Notes under the pieces: generated by a model
The model's input: only the letters and a program-made list of their open reading frames with translations
Database searches by the model: none
Told to the model about the DNA's origin: nothing
Position numbers and translations under genes: made by a program
Part shown: piece by piece, positions 1,713 to 15,981 of the stretch
Layout of the letters: each line of letters starts with the position of its first letter
How positions within the stretch are numbered: position 1 is the stretch's first letter
From: Acidobacteriota bacterium
GTDB taxonomy: Bacteria > Acidobacteriota > Terriglobia > UBA7540
Assembly (NCBI GenBank): GCA_902812365.1
Contig: CADDZC010000003.1
Coordinates: forward strand, 39,267 to 103,266
Direction of reading: 5' to 3'
DNA: 64,000 nucleotides

Positions 1713-3995
1713 ATGGCAAACCACGATAAGGGGAGTCCCGCCCCGGCCGGGGACGCGCGCCCCCTGCCCCGAGTTTTGCTGGCCACGACGGCCATGCTGA
1801 CGTTCATTTCCTTTTGGCGCGCGGCGGCCGTCGTCCTCAATGACCTGGCTTCCTCGGCCTTTTATGCCGGAGGCATTGCCGAGCAATTCATCGGACCCTC
1901 CGCTCCCTGGTACATCCTCGCTGTCATGCTGTTTGCGTACGCCGTCAGCCAGATGTACGTCGAGAGCTGCAGCATGTTCGTGCGCGGCGGCGTCTATCGC
2001 GTGGTCAAGGAAGCGATGGGGGGGACTCTTGCCAAGTTCTCCGTTTCGGCGCTGATGTTCGATTATATTTTGACCGGCCCGATTAGCGGCGTCTCCGCCG
2101 GTCAATATTTAGCTGGTTTTGTTAACGAATTCTTCGACTACGCCTACCGCGCCCATTATTTCAACTCCCGCTTCGCGGTCAACGCCAATACGACGGCGGC
2201 CGTTTTCGCCGTGGCGGTCACCCTTTATTTCTGGTGGCAAAACGTCAAAGGTATCGAAGAATCGAGCGAGAAGGCCGCCCGCATCATGAATTTCACCACC
2301 GTCATGGTGGTTCTTATGATCGCCTGGTGCGGCTATACGATCTGGACGCGACCCCAATTCCAGCACCTTCCTCCCTGGCCCAAGCCTTCAAACCTCGCGT
2401 TCTCGCCGGAGGCGAGAGGCTGGCTCCACCATCTGCCGGAAGCTATCGGCGTGATTGGCGTTCTCGTCGCTTTTGGCCACTCGGTGCTGGCGATGAGCGG
2501 CCTGGAGACCCTGGCTCAGGTGTACCGCGAGATCGAGCACCCTAAACTGCCCAATCTCAAGAAGACGGCGTTCGTCGTCTTCGTCTACAGCATGCTGTTC
2601 ACTTCGCTGGTCTCCTTCTTTGCCTTCATGATTATCCCCGACCGCTCAGCCCGCCTGGCGTACAAAGATAACCTGATCGCCGGCCTGGCCATGCATGTCG
2701 TCGGACCCTTTCCGGCTCGGCTGGCCTTTCACGCCTTCGTCGTCGTGGTCGGCATCATGATCCTTTCCGGAGCCGTGAATACGGCCATCGTCGGATCCAA
2801 CGGGGTGTTGAACCGCGTGTCCGAAGACGGCGTGCTGGCCGACTGGTTCCGGCGCCCTCATCCCCGCTTCGGCACCTCCTACCGGATCATCAATCTGGTG
2901 ACCGGCCTTCAGCTACTCACCATCGTGTTGAGCCGCGGCAACGTCATCGTACTGGGCGAAGCCTACGCCTTCGGCGTCATCTGGAGCTTCGCCATGAAGA
3001 GCTTGGCCGTCATGGTGCTCCGCTACACGGAGCCGGGCCCGCGCGAATATCGCGTGCCGATGAATTTTAAATTGTTCGGAGTGGAAATTCCGGTCGGCCT
3101 CGGCCTCATTACCCTAACTTTATTCGCCACGGCCGTCATCAATTTGTTCACCAAGGAAATTGCCACCATCTCGGGCGTGGCCTTCACCATCATTTTTTTC
3201 GCCGTCTTCACCTTCTCCGAGCGGATCACCCGCAAGCGGGGACTGGCGCACGGGGGGCTCGACCAGTTCCATTTGGAATCCGGCGAGCAGCTCTCGCGGC
3301 AGACGGTGGGATGTCGACCCGGAAACATCCTGGTGATGGTCCCCGATTATTACAAGCTCTACCATCTGGACCAGGTGCTGCGGCGCGTCAATGTGGAACG
3401 CCAGGACGTGGTGGTGCTGCACGTGCGCATTCTTTTGCGCGCCGGCTCGGGAGAACACCCGCTGGAACCCGAACAACTCTTTACAATCAATGAGCAAGAA
3501 CTGTTCAGCCGTGCCCTGAAGATGGCTGAGCAATACGGCAAGACGATCCGGCTGGCGGTCGTGGGAGCCAATGATATTTGGGACGCCATGGTTCGCGCCG
3601 CCACCAACCTGGAGTCCTCGACGATCGTGCTCGGAGCGTCCTCCAAGATGACGCCGGCGGAGGAGGCGCGGCGGGTCGGTGAGGCGTGGGAACGCTTGCC
3701 CGCCCCCAAACCCCAGTTTACGCTCCAGATTTACACGCCGAGCGGCGGGGAGTTCATCTCCTACCTCGGGCCGCACGCGCCGCATCTCACGCCCAAAGAG
3801 ATCGACCTGCTCCATAGCATCTGGCTCGAATTCAGCGCCGAGCTGGCCCCCGAGGAGCTGCACCACCACGACATCATCCACTTCGCCCTGAATGAACTTC
3901 AGGAGGAGATGCACAATGGCCGGCGCCAGGAATTGCTGGCCAAGCTCCGGCAACACCTGGAAGAGATCAAGAGCCGGCGGGTACCGCACTTGTGA
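1713..3995 (+). CDS. APC-superfamily amino-acid permease with C-terminal USP-like domain
   Basis: The first ~500 residues of this 760-residue protein contain about 12 hydrophobic segments of the APC (amino acid-polyamine-organocation) type, beginning with LATTAMLTFISFWRAAAVVL. Residues 520-690 are soluble: GNILVMVPDYYKLYHLDQVL, VVVLHVRILL, IRLAVVGAND and STIVLGASSKM resemble universal-stress-protein nucleotide-binding folds. The last ~70 residues are helical and charged. Fusion of an amino-acid transporter to a USP-like domain is known in the APC family and suggests cytoplasmic regulation by nucleotide or energy state. The substrate cannot be told from sequence. It stands alone, facing the convergent EamA gene across a 31-bp gap. 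No strong Shine-Dalgarno sequence precedes the ATG. Confidence 0.85.
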   Translation: MANHDKGSPAPAGDARPLPRVLLATTAMLTFISFWRAAAVVLNDLASSAFYAGGIAEQFIGPSAPWYILAVMLFAYAVSQMYVESCSMFVRGGVYRVVKEAMGGTLAKFSVSALMFDYILTGPISGVSAGQYLAGFVNEFFDYAYRAHYFNSRFAVNANTTAAVFAVAVTLYFWWQNVKGIEESSEKAARIMNFTTVMVVLMIAWCGYTIWTRPQFQHLPPWPKPSNLAFSPEARGWLHHLPEAIGVIGVLVAFGHSVLAMSGLETLAQVYREIEHPKLPNLKKTAFVVFVYSMLFTSLVSFFAFMIIPDRSARLAYKDNLIAGLAMHVVGPFPARLAFHAFVVVVGIMILSGAVNTAIVGSNGVLNRVSEDGVLADWFRRPHPRFGTSYRIINLVTGLQLLTIVLSRGNVIVLGEAYAFGVIWSFAMKSLAVMVLRYTEPGPREYRVPMNFKLFGVEIPVGLGLITLTLFATAVINLFTKEIATISGVAFTIIFFAVFTFSERITRKRGLAHGGLDQFHLESGEQLSRQTVGCRPGNILVMVPDYYKLYHLDQVLRRVNVERQDVVVLHVRILLRAGSGEHPLEPEQLFTINEQELFSRALKMAEQYGKTIRLAVVGANDIWDAMVRAATNLESSTIVLGASSKMTPAEEARRVGEAWERLPAPKPQFTLQIYTPSGGEFISYLGPHAPHLTPKEIDLLHSIWLEFSAELAPEELHHHDIIHFALNELQEEMHNGRRQELLAKLRQHLEEIKSRRVPHL

Positions 3996-4026: not shown

Positions 4027-5022
4027 TTAGCCGTCGCCGCCGATGGCTTCCGCTGCTTCTTGGTGGCGCAGCAATTGCGTCACCGTTACCCCCAGACATA
4101 TCAACACGACACCCGCCAGCATCAACTTGTTCACATACTGGTGAAGGAACCGATGCGCGAAGAGGGTCGCCATCAACGGGGTCAGCGATGAGACGGCGTA
4201 GACGCGCGCGACTTCCATCAACCGGAGTGCCGTAAAGATGCAGTAAATAGCGACAACGCCCGAAAGCGTCCCGCTCAACAGAAAACTGAGCCAACTGGGC
4301 CACGGTGTTTCAACGAGTAATCGCAGCCGCCCGGCCAGGGCCAGGCCCGCCAGCCCCACAACCAGGCTGGTGACAAACTGGAGCAGGATCGCCGTCGACT
4401 GGTGTGCGCCGCGAAGCTGCCCGTCCCGCCACAGAACTCCCGAAATGCCGTAGGAGACGGCCGAGAGCGCCGCCAAAGGCATGGCCCAGTACCACGCCGG
4501 AGACAGCGCGACACCACGGACTTGGCCGAGAATAAGGGCTAGAAGACCCACGCCGATCAGCGCCCACCCAAACAGCAAGAACCCCCGCAGTCGCTCGCCG
4601 AGCATGAACCAAGCGGCCACCGTTCCCCAGACTACCCAGGTCTCCAGCACCGGTACGGTAATCACGACGCCGCCCAGACGAATCGCAAAGTAATAGATGA
4701 ACAGGCCCAAGGTGGAAAGGAAGCCTGCCCAAAGAAAGGGCAAAATCGCTCGGCGACCGATGTACGCCTTCGATCCCGGCCAGAGCTGGCGGAACGTCCG
4801 ATTTTTGATCACCAGGGCGATGCCCAGCACGACACTCGGCAGCCCGCGCAGAAACGGCCCAACCAGCGGATCGCCGGCCGTGACCGCCATTTGATCGAAA
4901 ATGTTCGCCGCCGCGTAGCCAAAGACTGCCCCGAGCGCCCACAGCTCACCCGAGCGACGCGAACCGGCCGGGGCGCCAACCGTTGCCGCCGATTTCCCTG
5001 ATTTCTTCCCGAGCGTGGCCAT
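4027..5022 (-). CDS. EamA/DMT-superfamily permease, possible flavin or metabolite transporter
   Basis: The 331-residue protein has two repeated halves of five hydrophobic helices, typical of the EamA (drug/metabolite transporter) family. Visible landmarks are LWALGAVFGYAAANIFDQ near the N-terminus, VPVLETWVVWGTVAAWFMLGE in the first half and YAVSSLTPLMATLFAHRFL in the second. The reading frame stays open for 80 more codons upstream, but that part is basic and non-hydrophobic, so I start at the ATG at 5022 (MATLGKK...). Substrates of EamA proteins cannot be read from sequence. The gene is divergent from an FMN-riboswitch-controlled TonB receptor, and RibN, a known bacterial riboflavin importer, belongs to this superfamily. 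A flavin-uptake role is therefore a context-based inference only. Confidence 0.85.
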   Translation of the reverse strand: MATLGKKSGKSAATVGAPAGSRRSGELWALGAVFGYAAANIFDQMAVTAGDPLVGPFLRGLPSVVLGIALVIKNRTFRQLWPGSKAYIGRRAILPFLWAGFLSTLGLFIYYFAIRLGGVVITVPVLETWVVWGTVAAWFMLGERLRGFLLFGWALIGVGLLALILGQVRGVALSPAWYWAMPLAALSAVSYGISGVLWRDGQLRGAHQSTAILLQFVTSLVVGLAGLALAGRLRLLVETPWPSWLSFLLSGTLSGVVAIYCIFTALRLMEVARVYAVSSLTPLMATLFAHRFLHQYVNKLMLAGVVLICLGVTVTQLLRHQEAAEAIGGDG

Positions 5023-5136
5023 GGTGGAGTGAGCGATTATAGCCGTGTATGCGAGTTCGTGGGTCGCGTTCGTCACCGCGCGGCGCACGGATTTTCTCCC
5101 GTGCTGGGTTGGAAGGTGCGCCGGCAACGATGATTG

Positions 5137-5145
5137 TGCTATATT
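5137..5145 (+). promoter_or_regulatory. Possible extended -10 element upstream of FMN riboswitch
   Basis: TGCTATATT fits an extended -10 (TGn plus TATATT) and lies about 20 bases before the riboswitch P1 helix, so a transcript from here would begin just upstream of the aptamer. I see no good -35 hexamer at 17 bp. Confidence 0.4.
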
Positions 5146-5164
5146 AACCGAGACAATTCGATGT

Positions 5165-5327
5165 GACCTTCGGGGCAGGGTGAGGGAAGAGGTTTTTCCC
5201 AATTCCCGATCGGCGGTACAGCCCGCGAGGGAGGAAGAACAGGGGCTGATGGCGATGGCCACTGCGATTCATCCCACGATCCGGTGAAACTCCGGGGCCG
5301 ACGGTACAGTCCGGATGGAAGAAGGTC
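5165..5327 (+). promoter_or_regulatory. FMN riboswitch (RFN element)
   Basis: The aptamer is closed by a perfect 7-bp P1: GACCTTC (5165-5171) pairs with GAAGGTC (5321-5327). Conserved RFN segments follow in order: CGGGGCAGGGTGA, ATTCCCGATCGGCGGT, AGCCCGCGAG, the CCGG-TGAAACT-CCGG hairpin (5281-5295), GGCCGACGGT and AGTCCGGATGGAAGAAG. The P2 hairpin is longer than usual, with an inserted GGGAA...TTTCCC arm. The element points into the TonB receptor at 5521. In the ~190-base leader between aptamer and start I see no GC hairpin followed by a U-run. GCCCTCC (5409-5415) can pair with GGAGGGC (5494-5500) near the start codon, so translational control is more likely than termination (inference). Confidence 0.95.
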
Positions 5328-5520
5328 AGGGGTGATTTCGACGCTCGAGAAGCCTCGACGCCGGGACAGCGCGCCCGTGGAGCGCCGGCGGAACGATTTC
5401 TCTGGCGTGCCCTCCTTTCTTTCTCTTGCCCCGAAAAAACAGCTTTGAGCCAGCCGCTCTGGCCGAGGTGTCCGCTGGGATGGCACCGCCGCCGGAGGGC
5501 GACCTGGCGTGAGGACTGTC

Positions 5521-8500
5521 ATGACCAATATCATCCGACAAGCCTGGCTCGGCGGGTGTCTCGCGGTCTTAGGCGCGGGACTCTCCCCGGCTTCAGGTCA
5601 GTCTTGGAACAGCAGTTTGGAGGGCGTCGTTTTTGATCCTTCCGGTGCGGCTGTCCCTGCGGCTTTGGTTGAGTTGCGTAATGAGGCCACCGGTCAGACG
5701 CGCCGGACCCTCGCCGCCGCCGACGGCGCTTACAGCTTTCCGCTGTTGCCCGTCGGCACCTATGATTTGCGCGTCGAGAAACCAGGTTTTACCCCGCAAT
5801 TCGAGCGAGGCTTGGTTCTCGAGGTCGGCGAAGCGGCGCGCGTCAACGTGACTCTGCTGCTCGCGCATCGCCACACGGCCATCAGCGTGGAAGCGCGTCC
5901 CGCGCTGGTGGACACCGGTTCACCGGCGATCGGCGAGGAGATCGGCAACCGGCGGGTCAACCAGCTTCCCCTCAACGGCCGCCAGTTCTCCCAACTGGCC
6001 CTTCTCGCCGCCGGCACCGTGCCTCCCTACCCGAACGGCGCGACGCAGCAATTTAACACCCCAGCCCTGGGGCTGGGATTCTCCGTCAACGGCCAACGCT
6101 CGGAGCGCAATAATTTCACCCTGGACGGCGTCAGCATCACGGAGCCCTTTGCATATAGCCTCACCGTCAACCCGTCGGTGGATGCTATCCGCGAGTTTCG
6201 CGTGGTCGAGAATTCTTACTCCGCCGCCCAGGGCGTCACCTCCGGCGCCCAGGTGGAGATCGCCACGCGGTCGGGCACAAATCGGTTCGCCGGCACGGCC
6301 TATGAGTTTCTGCGCAACAGTGCGCTCGATGCTCGGAACTTTTTCGACGCTCCCAGCCGCCCCGTCCCGCCTTACCATCAGAACCAGTTTGGCGGTAGCC
6401 TGGGCGGGCCGATTCAACGGGATCGGTCGTTTTTCTTTGCCAATTACGAGGGCCTGCGAATCCACCAAAGTATAACCAACACGACGCTGTTGCCTTCGAT
6501 CGCTTTGCGAAATGGCGACTTCAGCGGCCTCAATCCGCTCACGGGAAGGCCATTTCCGCCCCTGATCGATCCGGCGACGGGCCGGCCGTTTGCGGGCAAC
6601 CAGATTCCCCTGTCGCGGATCGATCCTCTGTCGAACGCCATCCTGGCGCGCATCCCCTTGCCCAACCAACCCGGTGCCGGGCCGGAGGAAAATAATACGA
6701 TCAACGTCGGTGATCGAAAAGTCAGCTCCGACCAGTTCACCCTTCGGATTGATCATCAGTTGACGCCCAGCCACGAACTTTTTGCCCGCTTCCTGCTTTT
6801 CAATAGCGCTCAGCTTTTCCCCTTTGTGCCCAATTCGTTTGCCCAGAACCCCTCAGCTCCGCCGGGTTTCGGAACCAACAAGGACGACAGCGGGCGAAAT
6901 CTGGCTCTGGGTCTGACGAGTACGCTTCGGCCCACGCTCGTCAATGACTGTCGCTTTGGCTACAACTACTATTTCGGAACCAAAGAAGCCCAGAACATTC
7001 ACTCCGGGTTTTTGGAAAGCCACGGTATCCGGCGGGTGCCCGGGGCGACCAACGACGGCATTCCGGCTATCAACGTGCCCGGTTATGCGGACCTCGGCGA
7101 CAGTGACATCTTCCAGCCGCAACTTCGCCGAGACAATACGTTCCAATTTACGGACGCCCTGGTTTGGGTGAAGGGTCGCCATACCCTCCAGTTCGGTGGC
7201 GACGTGCGACGGTTCCGGTTGTTTTATCTCGTCGAAGACTTCGGCCAGGGTCTGTTTTCCTTTAGCGACGGACCGAGTTCGGTTTCAGGAACAGCCTTTG
7301 CAGATTTCCTTCTCGGGCGGCCGTTTCTTTCCTTCGCCCAGGCCGGCAATTCGGGCGGAAATGATCGACTCGACTACCTCGGGCTGTATGTGACGGATGA
7401 ATTTCACGCCACCCGCCGCCTGACGCTCAGCTACGGGTTGCGGGAAGAATTCTATTCACCGCCCACCAATGCCGACGGGCGCGCCTCGATTCTGGATCCG
7501 AGCGACGCCTTGCGCTTCATCGTGAGAAACGACCGCGGGCAGGCGCAGAGTCTAATCCAGACCCCGCTCATCGCAGGACTTCAGCAGCGGTTTGGACTTG
7601 AGTTTATGACCTCGCAGCAGGCCGGGTTGCCCCCGTCCTTGATCCGGCCCGATTGGTCCAACTGGGCGCCCCGCTTCGGCTGGGCCTATGACCTCCGCGG
7701 GGACGGCCGAACGTCGTGGCGCGGCGGATTCGGTGTGTTCAATTCGCTCGGCGAACTCGATTACGCCGCTGAAACCCGCCTCAGCCCACCCCTCACCGAA
7801 TTTCTCTTCGGTCTCGATCTTTGCCGTTTCTTCGGGCCGGGCGCCTGCGGCCAGCCGTACGCCCCGCCGCCGTTGACCTATGCTCTAGCCTACCAGTTGG
7901 GCAACCAGCCTCCGGATGCGGTTTCTTCGCCTCCCAATCTTCGTAACGGGTACGCTTACGAGTATAGCCTCGCGATCGAGCATGAGCTGACACCCCACAC
8001 CGTCGTGTCCGTAGCCTATTCGGGCTCCGACGCCCACAAATTGCCCCGCCGCGCGCTTCAGAACCAAGGCATACCCAACCTGCCGGGGCTGCGTCGAGGA
8101 TACCATCCGCAACCGGGGCCCAATCAGTTCATCCGGGCTACGGACGTCAATTCCAATTACAATGGCTTGATTGTGCGGCTTGAGCGGCGGTTCGAGCCCG
8201 GGCTCTCCTTGACGACGAGCTATACGTGGGGTAAATCGATCGATACCGCCTCTGGGTTGCAAGGGACGAACCAGCCTCAGGATAACTACAATCTGCGGGC
8301 TGAACGCGGCTTGTCTGATTTTGACATTCGCCACCGGTTGGTCCTGTCAAGCACGTGGGATCTGCCTTTCGGGGCTGGGCGGCGTTGGCTGGCGGCTCCG
8401 TGGTCTAAACTGGCCGCGGGCTGGAAGTTCGCTAATATTGTCACCTTCCAAACCGGCGAGCCCCTCACGGCTATCCTCCCGACAGCCTTGAGCGGCACCG

Positions 8501-8883
8501 ATTCCAACGGCACTGATCGCCCTGATCTTATTGGTAACCCTCGACTTCCAGCCAACCAACGAAACCCCAACCGTTGGTTTAACACCGCTGTTTTCGTGCC
8601 GCCCCCGGTCTACCATGATGTTTTCGGTGCCTTCAGCATCCCCGGCAACGAGGGACGGAACGTCATCACCGGCCCCGGCCTCGCCGATTGGGACTTGAGT
8701 CTGGCTCGGGATATCCGCCTCGCAGAAAGCACGGTCCTGACCCTCCGCGGCGACGTGTTTAACGCCACCAATCATCCCAACTTCGATCGCCCCGGTCTCA
8801 TTGTCGGCACTTCCAACTTCGGCAAGATCAGTTCGGCGGAGAACTCACGGCAAGTGCAACTGTCGCTCCGCCTCAGTTGGTGA
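5521..8883 (+). CDS. Oar-like TonB-dependent receptor under FMN riboswitch control
   Basis: This ~1120-residue outer-membrane protein has a signal peptide (MTNIIRQAW ... SPASGQ), then a carboxypeptidase-regulatory-like Ig domain (LEGVVFDPSGAAVPAALVEL, GAYSFPLLPVGTYDLRV). A TonB plug follows (RRVNQLPLNGRQFSQLALLA, SVNGQRSERNNFTLDGV), then a long beta-barrel ending in the aromatic-terminated strand QVQLSLRLSW. Such receptors bring large or scarce substrates across the outer membrane using TonB energy. The FMN riboswitch in its leader suggests repression when flavin is plentiful, so flavin or a flavin-linked compound is a candidate substrate (inference). Two starts compete: ATG 5521 with GAGG six bases upstream, and GTG 5509 with GGAGGG nine bases upstream. 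Both keep the signal peptide. Confidence 0.9.
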   Translation: MTNIIRQAWLGGCLAVLGAGLSPASGQSWNSSLEGVVFDPSGAAVPAALVELRNEATGQTRRTLAAADGAYSFPLLPVGTYDLRVEKPGFTPQFERGLVLEVGEAARVNVTLLLAHRHTAISVEARPALVDTGSPAIGEEIGNRRVNQLPLNGRQFSQLALLAAGTVPPYPNGATQQFNTPALGLGFSVNGQRSERNNFTLDGVSITEPFAYSLTVNPSVDAIREFRVVENSYSAAQGVTSGAQVEIATRSGTNRFAGTAYEFLRNSALDARNFFDAPSRPVPPYHQNQFGGSLGGPIQRDRSFFFANYEGLRIHQSITNTTLLPSIALRNGDFSGLNPLTGRPFPPLIDPATGRPFAGNQIPLSRIDPLSNAILARIPLPNQPGAGPEENNTINVGDRKVSSDQFTLRIDHQLTPSHELFARFLLFNSAQLFPFVPNSFAQNPSAPPGFGTNKDDSGRNLALGLTSTLRPTLVNDCRFGYNYYFGTKEAQNIHSGFLESHGIRRVPGATNDGIPAINVPGYADLGDSDIFQPQLRRDNTFQFTDALVWVKGRHTLQFGGDVRRFRLFYLVEDFGQGLFSFSDGPSSVSGTAFADFLLGRPFLSFAQAGNSGGNDRLDYLGLYVTDEFHATRRLTLSYGLREEFYSPPTNADGRASILDPSDALRFIVRNDRGQAQSLIQTPLIAGLQQRFGLEFMTSQQAGLPPSLIRPDWSNWAPRFGWAYDLRGDGRTSWRGGFGVFNSLGELDYAAETRLSPPLTEFLFGLDLCRFFGPGACGQPYAPPPLTYALAYQLGNQPPDAVSSPPNLRNGYAYEYSLAIEHELTPHTVVSVAYSGSDAHKLPRRALQNQGIPNLPGLRRGYHPQPGPNQFIRATDVNSNYNGLIVRLERRFEPGLSLTTSYTWGKSIDTASGLQGTNQPQDNYNLRAERGLSDFDIRHRLVLSSTWDLPFGAGRRWLAAPWSKLAAGWKFANIVTFQTGEPLTAILPTALSGTDSNGTDRPDLIGNPRLPANQRNPNRWFNTAVFVPPPVYHDVFGAFSIPGNEGRNVITGPGLADWDLSLARDIRLAESTVLTLRGDVFNATNHPNFDRPGLIVGTSNFGKISSAENSRQVQLSLRLSW

Positions 8884-8947
8884 CTCAGAGCCTCCGAATC
8901 GGGGTAATATATTCAGGCGAGGTCGTTTTCATGATCGGGGAGTGAGC

Positions 8948-9778
8948 ATGCAATCGGCTCTGCTGTGGTGCGCCCTCGGTTTCTACGGATTGGGCATTTT
9001 GTTGGCCCTGCCCTCGATGATGCGGCGGAGACCTTCCCTCCCCTCATCTACCTTGGCAGCCGTTGCGGTCGGTCTGGCTTGGCACGCCATAGCCCTCCTC
9101 ACCCTGGCTCGAGCCGTGCATCGCTTGCCGGCCATCGACGTGGAAAGCGCGATCTCGCTTTTAGCGTTTGGCGTAACCCTCGCCTTTTTTGTGACTTACT
9201 TGCGCTACCGCATTACCTCGCTGGGCATTTTCATGCTCCCGTTCTCCTTTTTCCTCACCCTGCTCGCCGCTTCACCCCGGGGTCGCCCGGCAGACTTTCG
9301 GCCTTTCTCCAACACTTGGATCGTCATCCACGTCTCCGCCATGATCGCGGGCTATACGGCGCTATTCTTAACTTTTGTCGCTGCGATCATGTACCTGATC
9401 CAGGAGCGCGAGCTCAAATCGAAAGCCCCGCGAGCCTTCTATTACCGCCTTCCGTCCCTCGAAGTTTGTGATCAACTTTATTATCGGTCGCTGGTTCTGG
9501 GGCTCTTCTTGCTAACCCTCGGTATTCTGACGGGCTTCGTCTGGGCCAGCCGGGCATGGCGCGGCCCCTGGGAGCTGGACCCCAAGATTCTGGCTTCGCT
9601 GGCGGTTTGGATCATTTACCTCGTATTGTTTTCGACCCGGTACAGCGGCAACTGGCGCGGCCGGCGGTTGGCCTACGGCGCCATCCTCGGATTTGCTGTC
9701 ATCATGGTGACCTTTCTCGGGGTGACGTTTGTGAGCCGCCAGCATGGATTCCTGCCGATGTCGGGGAGAATGCCATGA
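8948..9778 (+). CDS. CcsA/HemX-type cytochrome c assembly or heme-pathway membrane protein
   Basis: The 276-residue protein has about eight hydrophobic segments and is related to the CcsA/ResC/HemX family. The last third carries a tryptophan-rich stretch (FVWASRAWRGPWELDPK) that matches the WWD-like heme-handling region, and conserved histidines lie in WHAIALL and IVIHVSAMIAGY. The ATG at 8948 has GGGGAGTGAG just upstream. The in-frame sequence before it overlaps the receptor gene and looks non-coding. The gene leads hemA, hemC and hemD. HemX in this position is known to modulate HemA levels in Bacillus, whereas CcsA moves heme for cytochrome c maturation. Sequence alone does not decide between the two. 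Confidence 0.8.
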   Translation: MQSALLWCALGFYGLGILLALPSMMRRRPSLPSSTLAAVAVGLAWHAIALLTLARAVHRLPAIDVESAISLLAFGVTLAFFVTYLRYRITSLGIFMLPFSFFLTLLAASPRGRPADFRPFSNTWIVIHVSAMIAGYTALFLTFVAAIMYLIQERELKSKAPRAFYYRLPSLEVCDQLYYRSLVLGLFLLTLGILTGFVWASRAWRGPWELDPKILASLAVWIIYLVLFSTRYSGNWRGRRLAYGAILGFAVIMVTFLGVTFVSRQHGFLPMSGRMP

Positions 9779-12141: not shown

Positions 12142-12990
12142 ATGAGTAAAGCTGACCAGGTCGATGCGCGTGAACGGCCGCTCGAAGGGTGGCGGATTGT
12201 GGTGACGCGGGCCCGCGAGCAGGCACGCGTCTTGAGCGACGCGCTGCGCCAGCTCGGGGCCGAGCCAGTCGAAATCCCCGCGATCGAAATCCGCGACCCT
12301 CCATCCTGGGAGCCGATGGATAACGCCATCGCCCGCCTGAAGGAATTTCATTTTCTGCTTCTGACCTCGGCGAACGGAGTCCGCAAGTTTCTCGGGCGGC
12401 TGCGCCTGGGCAACCGGGATATTGGCGATCTCTCCCATCTCGAAGTCGGAGCGATCGGGCCGGCGACGGCAGCGGAGCTGACCCAGCGCGGCGTGCGAGT
12501 GGCGTTCGTGCCGCGGGAGTATCGCGCCGAAGGGCTGCTCGCCGCGCTCGAGGGGCGCGATGTGCAAGGCCGGGCCTTTCTGATTCCTCGCGCCCGGGTG
12601 GCCCGCGATTTGGTTCCGCGCGTCCTCCGCGAGCGGGGAGCAACCGTGGAAGTGGTGCCGGCTTACGAGACCGTGACTCCGGTCTTTGCGCCCGGAGAGC
12701 TCGAACGCTTGCTGTCTCCCCCGCCCCACATGCTGACGTTTACCAGCTCGTCGGCCGCCGCGCACTTCTTCTCCTTGCTGGCCCGGCACCGGCTCGCCGA
12801 TCGCGTCTCCGCCTCGGCCATCTCTTCCATCGGACCGGTGACCTCGGCCGCGCTGCGCGAACTCGGCCTGACCGTGGACCTCGAGGCGCGCGACTTCACC
12901 ATTCGCGGCCTGGTGGAAGCGATTCTGCAATACCGTCGCCGCCTTGCCACCCCTCAGCCGCACTCCGCAGCCAGGAGCCTGGGGCCTTAG
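12142..12990 (+). CDS. hemD: Uroporphyrinogen-III synthase
   Basis: The 282-residue protein is a HemD-type enzyme that cyclises hydroxymethylbilane with inversion of ring D. HemD proteins are poorly conserved. The supporting features are the N-terminal GWRIVVTRAREQARVLSDAL, the FLLLTSANGVRKF motif, the internal pseudo-repeat (VEVVPAYETV, LTFTSSSAAAHFF, ISSIGPVTSAALRELG) and the position directly after hemA-hemC. The last four bases overlap the stop of the convergent M55 peptidase gene. Confidence 0.92.
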   Translation: MSKADQVDARERPLEGWRIVVTRAREQARVLSDALRQLGAEPVEIPAIEIRDPPSWEPMDNAIARLKEFHFLLLTSANGVRKFLGRLRLGNRDIGDLSHLEVGAIGPATAAELTQRGVRVAFVPREYRAEGLLAALEGRDVQGRAFLIPRARVARDLVPRVLRERGATVEVVPAYETVTPVFAPGELERLLSPPPHMLTFTSSSAAAHFFSLLARHRLADRVSASAISSIGPVTSAALRELGLTVDLEARDFTIRGLVEAILQYRRRLATPQPHSAARSLGP

Positions 12991-13865
12991 AAGGAAGAAA
13001 ACTTCAGCCAGGCGTCCATCAGGTCCTGGCCTCGGAAGACCCAGGTGCGTCCGTCCAATTGCTCTACGCCCGGGCGGGGGGCGAACTGACGATGGGCGTT
13101 GGTGGTGAACTCCACCTTCACTTCCACCGGACCCGGCAGCGAGTACGGCGCGACCTCGCCGGCGTGGACCATCGCTTCGAGCGCCTGGCGGCGGATCAGC
13201 TCGCAGGCGGCCGCGTGCGGCATCATGAATCCGGCGCTCGCACTGGCAGCGGACTTGACCTCCGCACAACGCCCGCGGGGCACCAGATCGCGGAATTCCT
13301 CGCAGGCGGCGCGATCGCCCGAAAGCATGATGGCCGGAATGCCCAAGGCGCCGGCCAGCATCACCCGCCCACCGATCTCGCCGACGGCTTTGCCGTTGAC
13401 CCAGATGTTCTCAATGTCCCAGCTGTAGGAATGCGCCAGAATGGCATTTTTCGCTCCCGCCATGGCGTGCAGCCCGATGAAAACCAGCGCCGTGTAAGTT
13501 GAATCCAACTCCAGGGTAGGAGAGATAGGCTGGCCGAGCAGCAGCCGAACCTTGGGACTGTCAAAGTCCGCCACCGAGAGATTCTGCCCTCCGTAGTGCC
13601 CGTCATAGACAACGATGTCGGTGGCGCCGCCGGCGATCAATCCGCCTACAGCCGCCTTGGTTTCCTCAGTCAGGAGCTTTCGCGATTCTTCATAGCGAGG
13701 ACTCTGGTGCGGAATGCATTGCAGATCGAAATTGAAGATGCCATCCACGCCCTCAAGATCGGTCACCACGTAGACTTTCGCCCGCCGCTGGCCGTGAGCG
13801 AGCGCCGCCGCCACCAGGAGCGACAAGGCGCCGCTGGCAGCTCCCTTGAGAATTCTGCTCGGCAT
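12987..13865 (-). CDS. M55-family D-aminopeptidase (DppA-like), exported
   Basis: The 292-residue protein begins with a signal peptide (MPSRILKGAASGALSLLVAAALAHGQ) and then the M55 metallopeptidase core. The metal-binding start KVYVVTDLEGVDGI, the VYDGHYGG segment, LAHSYSWD and VNGKAVGEIGG match the aspartate, glutamate and histidine zinc ligands known from DppA. The LSGDRAACEEF motif is also present. DppA cleaves D-amino-acid dipeptides, and export suggests work on peptidoglycan-derived or external D-peptides (inference). The start at 13865 is chosen because the signal peptide begins there. The frame upstream overlaps argS. It follows argS by 31 bp on the same strand. Confidence 0.88.
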   Translation of the reverse strand: MPSRILKGAASGALSLLVAAALAHGQRRAKVYVVTDLEGVDGIFNFDLQCIPHQSPRYEESRKLLTEETKAAVGGLIAGGATDIVVYDGHYGGQNLSVADFDSPKVRLLLGQPISPTLELDSTYTALVFIGLHAMAGAKNAILAHSYSWDIENIWVNGKAVGEIGGRVMLAGALGIPAIMLSGDRAACEEFRDLVPRGRCAEVKSAASASAGFMMPHAAACELIRRQALEAMVHAGEVAPYSLPGPVEVKVEFTTNAHRQFAPRPGVEQLDGRTWVFRGQDLMDAWLKFSSF

Positions 13866-13896
13866 AGCGTCATCTCCCGCGCCGCCAGACTCAGCG

Positions 13897-15981
13897 TCAC
13901 ATCCGCTCCGGAACCTCGATGCCCAGCAGCTCGAGCGACCGCGCGAGCGTCCGGCTGACGATGTCGACCACGAAAAGCAGGAACCGCTGCCGCGCCGCGT
14001 CGGGTTCCGCAAGAATCCGGTGCCGGTGGTAGAAATTGTTGAAGGCTTGGGCCAGGCGAAAGGCGTATTTGGCCACCGTGGCCGGCTCCTCGCCCGCAAT
14101 CGCCTGCTCGACGATCATTTCCAGTTGGGCCGACCCAAGCACCAGCTCCCAAAAGTCGCCGCCCGACTCGCCGCTCAGAAAGGTGCGGAGCTGCTCGAGC
14201 GGAACCTCCAGGGGCCGTGCCTCGGAAAACTCGGGGTGGGCATCCCGAAATTTGCGGAAAATGTTGCGGGCCCGCACCACACTGTATTGCAAGTAGGGTC
14301 CGGTCTCGCCCTCGAACGCCAGGGCCTCCTGGAAATCGAACGTAATGATCGAGCGCCGCGTATATTTCAACAGGAAATACCGGAGGGCGGCGACGGCGAT
14401 CTGGCCGGCGCTGGCCTCCTGCTCCGCCCGATCCTCGGTCATGGCGCGCGCCTGGACCTCGTCCCGCGCTCGCCTCATCAGCAGGTCAATCAGATCGTCG
14501 GCCTTCACCCCCGAACCCTTGCGCCCGGAGACTTCCACGTAGTCGCGGACCCGGTCCTCCTCCGTCACCTCCATGCCTAGGTCTGCCGCCGCGCGAAGCG
14601 AAAGGTTCACAACCTGATAGGCGAAGTGATGCAGATTGTCGGCCTGCGCCGAGTAGCCCAAGGCGCGCAGGGCCGCGGCCACCACACCTTGCAAATACGC
14701 CTGGCGCGTGTCGATGACGACGTAGGCCGCCGACGCCCGCCCAAACGCCGGAGCGCGCCCGTCGCGCCGATCCTCGACTGCGGTCCGCCAAATCACATGA
14801 CCGTCCGGGCAGGTGTGAAACGGCTCGTAGCCGAAATCCTCCCCCAGCAACCCGAATTTCCACAAGTGGTAAGCGATGTCTTTGCCGACGTAGGTCACCG
14901 TGCCGTTCGACCGCACGATGATTTTGATGTCTTCTTCCGCTTCCTCCTCGCCGGGGCCGGAGTCCGCTGCCGTCTCTTCGCCCGGCGAGCGCCCGTTTCC
15001 CGCCAGGCTCATGACCCAGCAGCCGCGATTTTTGCCCGCGTCTTCGTAGCGCAAGGCGCCGCGGCTCTTCAGCAGCTCGAAGGCGCGGCTCCAAAAGTTG
15101 AGCCGCAGAATCTCGCTCTCGCGAACGAGCAGATCGTAGTCAATGTTCAATCGCCGCATGGTGGCGAGGTGGAGGCGGACGATGGCGGTGGAAACGGCTT
15201 CGGCGACGGCCGCCGGTTCGCCGCGTCCTTCCTCGATGTCCTTGAGAGCGGCGGCGCGCCACGCCAGGGACTCGGGATGGCCGTCGTACCACTGAAAGAC
15301 CCGCGCGTAGAGGTCCCAGCAATAGTAGTCGAAGCGCAGGCTGGGATCGTCGATGAGCCGGCGCACCTCCGCCAGGCTTTTCTTCTCCAGATGAATGAAA
15401 CCCACCACCACGTCGGCCACCTGGACCCCGGTATTGTCGATGTAGTTCTGCACTTCGACGGGGCGGCCGCGGTAGCGCAGCAGGCGCGCGAACGTGTCGC
15501 CCAAAACGGCGTTGCGCAGGTGACCGATGTGGGCGGCTTTGTTGGGATTGATGCTGGTGTGTTCGACGAGGATCTTCGCCGCCCGGGCGGCCGCCTCCGC
15601 ACTCTCCGCCCCCGCGGATATCCCCTCCGCCGCCCTCGACCGGCCCTCCCCGGTTTCACTCGCGCGGTGCCGGAAGACGGCCTGAGCCAGCAGGGCCCGG
15701 TCCAGGTGAAAATTGAGATACCCGGCCCCGGCCACGCTGACGCGCTCGATGCCATCAAGCGGCACCAAGCGAGGCGCCAGTTGCTCGGCAATCTGGCGCG
15801 GCGACTGGCGAAGCGCCCGGGCGAGCTCAAAACACGAGGCAATCGAAAGTTCGCCCAAACGGGAGCTGGGCGGGTATCCGAGAACCGGCTCGGCGAGCTC
15901 GATGCCGAAGAGTTGTCGGACGGCTTGAACAAACCTCTCTCGAACCGCCTGCTGAATTTCCAGGTACAAACGCTCTCTCAC
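13897..15981 (-). CDS. argS: Arginyl-tRNA synthetase
   Basis: This 694-residue class I synthetase charges tRNA-Arg. The N-terminal Add-1 domain is followed by the HIGH motif in NPNKAAHIGHLRNAVLGD and the anticodon-stem domain containing RAREIF-like elements (VVRARNIFRKF). The KMSKS position reads VSGRKGSGVKADDL, the form seen in ArgRS enzymes lacking a canonical KMSK. The C-terminal DALR anticodon-binding domain ends in RSLELLGIEVPERM. Two low-complexity insertions are visible: about residues 105-135 (Ala/Glu rich, between the Add-1 domain and HIGH) and about residues 325-350 (acidic). The gene probably shares a transcript with the downstream M55 peptidase. Confidence 0.96.
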   Translation of the reverse strand: MRERLYLEIQQAVRERFVQAVRQLFGIELAEPVLGYPPSSRLGELSIASCFELARALRQSPRQIAEQLAPRLVPLDGIERVSVAGAGYLNFHLDRALLAQAVFRHRASETGEGRSRAAEGISAGAESAEAAARAAKILVEHTSINPNKAAHIGHLRNAVLGDTFARLLRYRGRPVEVQNYIDNTGVQVADVVVGFIHLEKKSLAEVRRLIDDPSLRFDYYCWDLYARVFQWYDGHPESLAWRAAALKDIEEGRGEPAAVAEAVSTAIVRLHLATMRRLNIDYDLLVRESEILRLNFWSRAFELLKSRGALRYEDAGKNRGCWVMSLAGNGRSPGEETAADSGPGEEEAEEDIKIIVRSNGTVTYVGKDIAYHLWKFGLLGEDFGYEPFHTCPDGHVIWRTAVEDRRDGRAPAFGRASAAYVVIDTRQAYLQGVVAAALRALGYSAQADNLHHFAYQVVNLSLRAAADLGMEVTEEDRVRDYVEVSGRKGSGVKADDLIDLLMRRARDEVQARAMTEDRAEQEASAGQIAVAALRYFLLKYTRRSIITFDFQEALAFEGETGPYLQYSVVRARNIFRKFRDAHPEFSEARPLEVPLEQLRTFLSGESGGDFWELVLGSAQLEMIVEQAIAGEEPATVAKYAFRLAQAFNNFYHRHRILAEPDAARQRFLLFVVDIVSRTLARSLELLGIEVPERM

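What the first reader, a model, noticed from the sequence alone, without database searches (positions are those of the whole stretch)
5165..8883. FMN riboswitch in the leader of an Oar-like TonB-dependent receptor
The sequence shows a near-consensus RFN element with a perfect 7-bp P1, reading into an 1100-residue outer-membrane receptor. Established knowledge: FMN riboswitches normally control rib biosynthesis genes or inner-membrane flavin importers, and cobalamin is the usual riboswitch ligand for TonB receptors. Inference: this receptor may import riboflavin, FMN, a flavin precursor or a flavin-bearing compound across the outer membrane, a step with few known dedicated carriers.
Basis: partly seen in the sequence, partly recalled or inferred. 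Interest (0 to 1): 0.78.

Follow-up and report, generated by a model that had tools for sequence, protein, structure and literature searches.

The report
Outer-membrane flavin importer under FMN riboswitch
In a group of Acidobacteria in whose draft genomes no genes for making riboflavin (vitamin B2) were found, the RNA switch that in close relatives sits before those genes sits instead before an outer-membrane receptor gene, so the receptor likely imports the vitamin, a job for which our paper searches showed no dedicated outer-membrane carrier.

Summary
RF00050 scores 94.1 bits (cut-off 66.2) at 5162-5330, with a perfect 7-bp P1, and is the only FMN riboswitch found in this genome. It leads into a 1120-aa receptor of the PF13620 + PF25183 type, predicted to fold like TonB-dependent transporters. 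In the window's own family (39 genomes held), 25 of 26 riboswitches can be assigned to a gene: 15 to this receptor, 10 to a rib operon. All 15 receptor-type genomes lack lumazine synthase and a full RibD; all 10 operon-type genomes have both. RibF is retained in 22 of 24 tested, so these bacteria are predicted riboflavin auxotrophs that must import flavin. A divergent EamA gene (4027-5022, minus strand) occurs in 20 of 24 rib-minus and 0 of 15 rib-plus genomes and is the likely inner-membrane step. In one rib-plus genome the riboswitch and rib operon follow the same flanking permease gene, as if the target had been exchanged in place. A leader element complementary to the aptamer's 5' strand is conserved. 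Substrate, FMN response and TonB dependence are untested. New variant of a known kind.

The parts
5162..5330 (+). FMN riboswitch aptamer (RFN element)
   Evidence: RF00050, 94.1 bits, E 2.3e-20, full length; only one found in the genome
5165..5171 (+). P1 5' strand GACCUUC, pairs with 5321-5327
   Evidence: sequence and cmscan alignment
5321..5327 (+). P1 3' strand GAAGGUC
   Evidence: sequence
5424..5435 (+). anti-aptamer element, complementary to the aptamer 5' strand 5169-5180; likely the switching partner
   Evidence: 12 pairs 5169-5180 with 5424-5435 in the minimum-energy fold of 5162-5545, with 5165-5168 of P1 left unpaired; duplex -22.0 kcal/mol; own-aptamer 7-mer complement found in 14 of 25 leaders, shuffle mean 1.08
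5511..5514 (+). GAGG, presumed Shine-Dalgarno of the receptor
   Evidence: sequence, 6 nt before ATG 5521; function inferred
5521..8883 (+). outer-membrane receptor, 1120 aa: N-terminus that looks like a signal peptide (read by eye), CarboxypepD_reg domain, plug-like region, beta barrel
   Evidence: Pfam PF13620 and PF25183; AlphaFold model with 22 long barrel strands by my count; Foldseek matches to TonB-dependent transporters
4027..5022 (-). EamA/DMT-family transporter, divergent from the riboswitch; likely inner-membrane flavin step
   Evidence: Pfam PF00892 on the longer frame 4027-5262; orthologue in 20 of 24 rib-minus, 0 of 15 rib-plus family members and 0 of 112 other genomes
1713..3995 (+). 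amino-acid permease, convergent with EamA; marks the chromosomal place (flank, not part of the system)
   Evidence: PF13520; an orthologue also lies upstream of the riboswitch and ribE in rib-plus genome G016

Best explanation
The FMN riboswitch at 5162-5330 stands before the gene for an outer-membrane receptor that likely takes up riboflavin (or another flavin) in a bacterium in whose genome no riboflavin-synthesis genes were found. Shown by computation: the riboswitch, its position before the receptor in 15 related genomes, the absence of ribB, ribE, ribH and full-length RibD where they were sought, the retention of RibF, and the matching distribution of the divergent EamA gene. Inferred mechanism: flavin at low concentration is bound by the receptor and carried through the barrel with TonB energy, crosses the inner membrane through EamA, and is turned into FMN and FAD by RibF. 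When FMN is scarce, the anti-aptamer element at 5424-5435 pairs with the aptamer's 5' strand and the receptor is made. When FMN is plentiful it locks the aptamer (P1 formed), the element is released, and expression falls, most likely at translation start. The receptor unit appears to have replaced the rib operon beneath a riboswitch that stayed in place.
For: Riboswitch. In the window's family (39 genomes, G000-G038), 26 have RF00050; 0 of 112 other genomes in the same search do. Targets: 15 receptor, 10 rib operon, 1 at a contig end (G011). Rib genes: DHBP synthase, riboflavin synthase and lumazine synthase are present in the same 10 and absent in the same 14 of the 24 family genomes tested with all three. 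Lumazine synthase in the other 15: 5 present, 10 absent. Full-length RibD (143 bits or more) only in the same 15 rib-plus genomes of 39. RibF in 22 of 24 tested. Receptor orthologue (66-77% identity) in 18 family genomes, plus a contig-end fragment in G027: 19 of 24 rib-minus, 0 of 15 rib-plus. EamA in 20 of 24 and 0 of 15. All 8 rib-minus genomes of 90% completeness or more (G000, G001, G002, G003, G004, G009, G024, G034) have riboswitch, receptor and EamA. Synteny: permease-riboswitch-ribE in rib-plus G016 against permease-EamA-riboswitch-receptor in rib-minus genomes. Leader element: exact 7-mer in 14 of 25 leaders, shuffle mean 1.08, maximum 5 in 1000; 0 of 25 when the A/G position is swapped. 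In 8 of 15 receptor leaders (G001, G002, G008, G027, G031, G034, G036, G038) an in-frame start codon follows GAGG or GGGGG just after that element, which suggests control of translation. Structure: 279 Foldseek matches at E 0.001 or better; the 50 shown are all outer-membrane proteins that I recognise as TonB-dependent, among them PqqU and BtuB. The RpoB+RpoC tree rejects the 13 uptake-bearing rows as one clade, p-AU 0.00013, so more than one change of state is needed on it.
Against: No binding, transport or expression data. Independent contrasts on the tree are too few for a sign test (2 pairs on well-supported branches, 5 on all; median p 1), and the Fisher values ignore kinship. Three rib-minus genomes (G017 80%, G025 75%, G033 77% complete) show neither receptor nor EamA. 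G011 and G024 carry EamA away from the receptor. EamA is divergent, so not under the riboswitch in cis. An FMN riboswitch alone does not prove a flavin role: PMC4418817 (section read) lists two FMN-riboswitch genes with no obvious flavin role. Leader by leader, the longest duplex with the aptamer is below p 0.05 in only 6 of 25 (the window among them, p 0.025; mononucleotide shuffles); 5 of 15 receptor leaders lack the exact 7-mer, and of the five A-type aptamers only one (G012) has it. In the window the hairpin over the ribosome-binding site suggested by relatives is not evident, and 5316-5560 folds no better than shuffles (z 0.01). The receptor reads in more than one frame near its N-terminus in G003 and has no in-frame start in G037, so those two may be broken or misassembled. 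The receptor model has modest confidence (mean pLDDT 64.7), and the Plug family was not reported at E 0.001.
Confidence: 0.82

Rival explanations
1. The receptor imports something other than free riboflavin whose use depends on flavin status, for example a flavin-binding protein, FMN/FAD, an iron complex or a cobamide, and the riboswitch only reports flavin state.
For: Oar-like receptors are numerous in Acidobacteria and their substrates are mostly unknown (recalled); the first look gave 11 to 141 candidates a genome in the 41 genomes listed. The best structural match is FusA, a ferredoxin receptor. FMN riboswitches before genes without an obvious flavin role are on record (PMC4418817).
Against: Receptor and missing rib genes go together (19 of 24 against 0 of 15). 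An auxotroph needs flavin itself, and this receptor carries the only RF00050 found in the genome. A flavin-bearing ligand would still be flavin uptake.
Confidence: 0.12
2. The EamA gene is an amino-acid or drug exporter linked to the neighbouring permease and unrelated to flavin; another, unrecognised inner-membrane carrier brings flavin in.
For: EamA/DMT members have many substrates (recalled). EamA is convergent with, and near, an amino-acid permease in the 11 genomes where both lie in one fetched locus, about 3 kb apart in G007, and is not downstream of the riboswitch. NCBIfam gives only weak, below-cut-off names.
Against: Orthologue in 20 of 24 rib-minus and 0 of 15 rib-plus genomes although the permease also occurs in rib-plus G016. 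Divergent from the receptor in all 11 genomes where EamA and receptor lie in one fetched locus.
Confidence: 0.25
3. The riboswitch is a remnant left when the rib operon was deleted, and the receptor lies behind it by chance.
For: The same chromosomal flank precedes the riboswitch and ribE in G016.
Against: The three core blocks of the aptamer match the pattern in 13 of 14 receptor leaders counted and in G008; the miss, G037, lacks the middle block where its sequence holds N. The anti-aptamer 7-mer is present in 10 of 15 receptor leaders. The same riboswitch-receptor order is seen in distinct branches of the RpoB+RpoC tree.
Confidence: 0.04
4. The rib genes are missing only because the genomes are draft assemblies.
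For: All members are assemblies in many contigs, and the rib genes form one operon, so one missing contig removes all of them.
Against: 8 rib-minus genomes are 90% complete or more, and all 8 have riboswitch, receptor and EamA; none of the 11 rib-plus genomes of that quality has receptor or EamA.
Confidence: 0.03

Closest known systems
FMN riboswitch (RF00050) before bacterial riboflavin transporter genes (ribU, ribM, ribN, impX, ribXY, rfuABCD-like)
   Same: Same riboswitch family; control of a flavin uptake gene in place of, or beside, biosynthesis genes (PMC4418817, section 13 with Table 1 and passages; PMC3766115, passages).
   Different: The gene here encodes an outer-membrane receptor. 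Table 1 of PMC4418817 (ten entries) names no outer-membrane receptor, and 'outer membrane' and 'TonB' do not occur in that text.
Cobalamin riboswitch before TonB-dependent receptors (BtuB type)
   Same: A riboswitch for a cofactor before an outer-membrane receptor gene; an example is listed in Gluconobacter oxydans (PMC5756330, passage).
   Different: Ligand is FMN, not cobalamin; the receptor has the CarboxypepD_reg plus PF25183 make-up.
PqqU (YncD), TonB-dependent PQQ importer
   Same: Outer-membrane TonB-dependent import of a scarce redox cofactor by bacteria of which many do not make it (PMC12124388, start of abstract and passages); 9c4o is the fifth structural match.
   Different: 9% identity in the structural alignment; other cofactor; the words 'riboswitch' and 'flavin' do not occur in PMC12124388.
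RibN / ImpX riboflavin transporters
   Same: Single membrane proteins for riboflavin import (PMC4418817); that RibN is an EamA/DMT protein like the divergent gene here is recalled.
   Different: No sequence comparison with RibN or ImpX was made. The gene here is opposite to the riboswitch, not behind it. RibN is reported from Proteobacteria only (PMC4418817, passage).

Membership tests
FMN riboswitch (RF00050) | Covariance-model score above the curated cut-off over the full aptamer | tested here: met
   94.1 bits against 66.2, model 1-138
FMN riboswitch (RF00050) | P1 and conserved core blocks intact | tested here: met
   7-bp P1; three core blocks present in the window
FMN riboswitch (RF00050) | Expression platform mutually exclusive with the aptamer | tested here: inconclusive
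   12-bp competing duplex in the minimum-energy fold and 7-mer conserved in 14 of 25 leaders, but the step controlled in the window is not resolved
FMN riboswitch (RF00050) | Binds FMN and lowers expression | not testable with these tools
   needs in-line probing and a reporter assay
TonB-dependent outer-membrane transporter | Export signal, N-terminal plug and 22-strand barrel | tested here: inconclusive
   barrel domain PF25183; 22 long strands by my count, short ones left out, in a model of pLDDT 64.7; Foldseek matches to such transporters; Plug family not reported at E 0.001; signal peptide read by eye
TonB-dependent outer-membrane transporter | Energised by TonB through a TonB box | not tested
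   no search for TonB or a TonB box was made
Bacterial riboflavin transporter | Linked to the FMN riboswitch or to rib genes, or found in riboflavin auxotrophs | tested here: met
   15 of 25 assigned riboswitches of the family precede the receptor, all in genomes without lumazine synthase
Bacterial riboflavin transporter | Moves riboflavin (complementation of a rib mutant) | not testable with these tools
   bench test proposed
EamA/DMT transporter (divergent gene) | EamA domains and DMT fold | tested here: met
   PF00892, 82.3 bits against 28.2, two stretches; Foldseek matches to SLC35B1, 5i20 and LicB, which I recognise as DMT-fold transporters
RibN or ImpX family (divergent gene) | Orthology to RibN or ImpX | not tested
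   no RibN or ImpX sequence was compared

The most novel reading that the evidence does not exclude
A dedicated outer-membrane flavin importer, working with an EamA protein as a two-membrane vitamin B2 uptake system, arose in Acidobacteria when the biosynthesis operon under an FMN riboswitch was exchanged for an import receptor while the riboswitch stayed in place.
Probability: 0.7. Interest if true: 0.85.

Novelty: new variant of a known kind. Interest (0 to 1): 0.77.

Why it matters
I found no dedicated outer-membrane flavin carrier in the papers I could search, so how Gram-negative riboflavin auxotrophs get flavin across the outer membrane is open. This locus names a receptor, a probable inner-membrane partner and a built-in sensor, which makes the question directly testable. 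It also shows one riboswitch whose target differs between close relatives (make the vitamin, or likely import it), and it predicts dependence of these bacteria on vitamin B2 from their neighbours.

Tried and rejected
Independent contrasts: too few pairs to give a sign test; reported as such. The first two-gene tree used RpoB twice by mistake and was discarded; one search was discarded because one row (G016) was read from the wrong strand. One search is the corrected tree.

Could the low Rfam scores of seven leaders (G002, G008, G009, G024, G027, G034, G037) mean decayed aptamers? Rejected: the core blocks are present in six of them, outside the truncated hits, and G037 misses one block where its sequence holds N.

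Could the rib operons of G005, G014, G021, G026 and G030 carry a missed riboswitch? A sensitive scan of the five loci found none. Regain of rib genes in that branch was considered; the RibBA tree (G047 left out) does not settle it.

Sequence search of solved structures gave, for the receptor, four matches to the N-terminal carboxypeptidase-like region only, and for EamA three matches near E 0.01 to a human receptor that I take for chance. The plasmid collection gave only matches under 60% identity; the best five listed were 26 to 29%.

Prior report: the listings (2 of 2 papers; 25 of 196; 25 of 43; 20 of 125; 20 of 81; 15 of 31; 2 of 2) showed no FMN riboswitch before an outer-membrane receptor and no flavin TonB-dependent transporter; passages of PMC12405394, PMC5756330, PMC12702654 and PMC11475020 did not either. 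The library is open-access only; Vitreschak 2002 was not held.
Full report
OBSERVATION. Infernal finds RF00050 at 5162-5330 on the plus strand with 94.1 bits, cut-off 66.2, E 2.3e-20, over the whole model. It is the only Rfam match above threshold in the window and the only RF00050 found in the window's genome. P1 is a perfect 7-bp helix, 5165-5171 with 5321-5327. The next gene on the strand is a 1120-residue receptor from ATG 5521 to 8883, with PF13620 and PF25183.

COMPARISON WITHIN THE FAMILY. The tool gave 39 genomes of the window's own family (G000 to G038). RF00050 occurs in 26 of these 39 and in 0 of 112 other genomes in the same search, which used stricter filters that can lose weak matches. 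I fetched the surroundings of the 25 others and read the downstream genes. Fifteen riboswitches lead into an orthologue of the window's receptor (G000, G001, G002, G003, G004, G008, G009, G020, G024, G027, G031, G034, G036, G037, G038). G008 was assigned from the receptor's N-terminal residues in its leader DNA. Ten lead into a riboflavin operon (G006, G010, G012, G013, G016, G022, G023, G028, G029, G032), in the order ribE, ribH, ribBA, ribD where complete; in G016 the contig ends inside ribE. One lies at a contig end (G011).

RIBOFLAVIN GENES. In the 24 family genomes G000 to G023, DHBP synthase (PF00926), riboflavin synthase (PF00677) and lumazine synthase (PF00885) are present in the same 10 and absent in the same 14. 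All 15 non-family genomes in those calls have all three. For G024 to G038 only lumazine synthase and RibD_C were tested: lumazine synthase in 5 of 15. RibD_C (PF01872) was tested in all 39: a full-length RibD-like match (143 bits or more) occurs in exactly the 15 rib-plus genomes; of the other 24, 9 have no match and 15 only weaker ones (100 bits or less, frames of 82 to 305 aa). In the window's genome none of the four families was found. RibF (PF06574), which makes FMN and FAD from riboflavin, is present in 22 of the 24 family genomes tested, this one included; G004 and G008 gave none. These bacteria are therefore predicted to need external riboflavin and to be able to use it.

CO-OCCURRENCE. 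All 15 receptor-type riboswitches are in rib-minus genomes and all 10 operon-type ones in rib-plus genomes. A receptor orthologue at E below 1e-180 is found in 18 family genomes (only the best 4 first-look candidates of each genome were scored), and a contig-end fragment in G027: 19 of 24 rib-minus, 0 of 15 rib-plus. Three genomes of another family have a 40% identical protein but no RF00050. The divergent EamA gene has an orthologue in 20 of 24 rib-minus, 0 of 15 rib-plus and 0 of 112 other genomes. Three rib-minus genomes have neither (G017, G025, G033; 75 to 80% complete). Among genomes at least 90% complete, all 8 rib-minus ones have riboswitch, receptor and EamA, and none of 11 rib-plus ones has receptor or EamA. 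Fisher values of 1.5e-7 to 7.7e-7 ignore kinship and are descriptive only.

PHYLOGENY. A tree of RpoB plus RpoC for 29 genomes (27 of the 39 family members and 2 outgroups; 2648 columns) scatters the rib-minus genomes: at least 5 changes of state, 4 without G017 and G025. The other 12 family members were left out for want of a whole or nearly whole RpoB among the loci fetched. Holding the 13 uptake-bearing rows together is rejected, p-AU 0.00013. The number of independent pairs is too small for a sign test. In the receptor tree (21 rows; G027 fragment left out) G011 and G024 fall among genus g3, unlike their place in the RpoB+RpoC tree. In G024 the leader still carries the riboswitch, which suggests that riboswitch and receptor moved together (inference).

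SAME CHROMOSOMAL PLACE. In the window the order is amino-acid permease (plus), EamA (minus), riboswitch, receptor. In rib-plus G016 an orthologous permease (70% identity) is followed by the riboswitch and the start of ribE; the rest of ribE and the operon lie at the end of another contig. That is the basis for saying the target was exchanged in place. It rests on one of the 10 operon-type loci; no permease match was found in the other nine fetched stretches, some of which are short. EamA and receptor are divergent in all 11 genomes where both lie in one fetched locus; in G011 and G024 they are apart.

LEADER MECHANISM. About 80 to 140 nt after the aptamer many leaders carry CUGCCCCG or a close form, complementary to the aptamer's 5' strand. 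The exact complement of each leader's own 7-mer occurs within 180 nt in 14 of 25 leaders, against a mean of 1.08 and a maximum of 5 in 1000 dinucleotide shuffles; among 15 receptor leaders 10, against 0.63 and 4. With the variable A/G position swapped the count is 0 of 25; for a 6-mer the counts are 18 own and 2 swapped. A weaker test, the longest duplex in each leader against mononucleotide shuffles, is below 0.05 in 6 of 25 leaders, the window's (0.025) among them. The five A-type aptamers are all from rib-plus leaders of two genera; only G012 has the exact 7-mer, and G006 and G032 a shifted one, so the covariation may rest on one or two events. In the window 5169-5180 pairs with 5424-5435 in the minimum-energy fold of 5162-5545 and the first four bases of P1 stay free; the duplex is worth -22.0 kcal/mol. 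In 8 of 15 receptor leaders an in-frame start codon (seven UUG, one AUG) lies a few bases after GAGG or GGGGG that follows the element (G001, G002, G008, G027, G031, G034, G036, G038), and in G008, G031, G036 and G038 these Gs can pair with the element's CCCC (read by eye). This suggests control of translation. In the window the ribosome-binding site lies 75 nt further on, this hairpin is not evident, and 5316-5560 is no more stable than shuffles (z 0.01).

PROTEINS. The AlphaFold model of the receptor has mean pLDDT 64.7; I count 22 long barrel strands from residue 257 to 1119, leaving out short ones. Foldseek gives 279 matches at E 0.001 or better; the 50 listed are outer-membrane proteins that I recognise as TonB-dependent: FusA first, then Cir, PirA, PqqU with PQQ, BtuB and others. 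The EamA model (pLDDT 72.8) matches DMT-fold transporters. In G003 the receptor's aligned part begins at residue 227 with its N-terminal part in another frame, and in G037 no in-frame start was found; these may be frameshifts or assembly faults.

OTHER ACIDOBACTERIOTA. In 396 genomes drawn over the phylum, 8 have RF00050, this one included. Six others are above the cut-off; five of these precede a DHBP synthase (four by Pfam, one by motif) and one a RibD. The seventh scores 26.8 bits and was not assigned.

NAMES. In the pattern scan of named genomes, 10 of 39 loci encode a receptor 66 to 76% identical; their records are titled Acidobacteria bacterium (three of them gp13) or Terriglobia bacterium; the next is 34% identical.

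LITERATURE. PMC4418817 (section 13 with Table 1, and passages) lists ten genes or units outside biosynthesis that carry the FMN riboswitch and names no outer-membrane receptor; two have no obvious flavin role; 'outer membrane' and 'TonB' do not occur in it. PMC3766115 (passages) divides FMN regulons into biosynthesis and riboflavin transporters and does not contain 'TonB' or 'outer membrane'. The review PMC11658791 (passages) does not contain 'flavin' or 'riboflavin'. Searches showed no earlier report in their listings, which were partial in five of the seven.

VERDICT. The riboswitch is ordinary; the gene behind it, in a rib-minus lineage, is not. I judge it 82% likely that this is a flavin uptake receptor under FMN control, and a new variant of a known kind.

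Noticed in passing
riboswitch stems of L043, L045, L046, L050 and L051 (G004, G002, G008, G027, G009): The variable stem inside several aptamers of this family carries AGTGACAAGTGAC-type repeats that look like an imperfect inverted repeat. The exact 13-mer was found in 20 of 227 loci: 19 are overlapping fetches of these five riboswitch regions, and one (L179) is an rpoBC stretch of G017. It may be a small mobile repeat that settled in a tolerant stem.
   Followed up: partly
L192 to L196 (G005, G021, G014, G030, G026): Five rib-plus genomes have rib genes in a cluster without any detectable FMN riboswitch; four of them are in the RpoB+RpoC tree and branch near rib-minus genomes. Loss of the riboswitch or regain of the operon is possible.
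   Followed up: partly
L041, L047, L198, L219, L220 (G011, G024): In genus g12 the receptor falls with genus g3 in the receptor tree and lies apart from EamA, as if the receptor, in G024 with its riboswitch, had moved between genera.
   Followed up: partly
L032 (G003) and L049 (G037): The receptor's N-terminal part is in another frame from the rest, or has no in-frame start; frameshift or assembly fault not decided.
   Followed up: no
window 8801-9778 (+): A cytochrome c assembly (CcsB-like) frame follows the receptor; no match to it was seen among the frames of the 25 other loci, so the receptor is probably transcribed alone there.
   Followed up: no
window 12142-12990 (+) and 12987-14099 (-): A uroporphyrinogen-III synthase (HemD) and an M55 D-aminopeptidase lie further downstream.
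   Followed up: no
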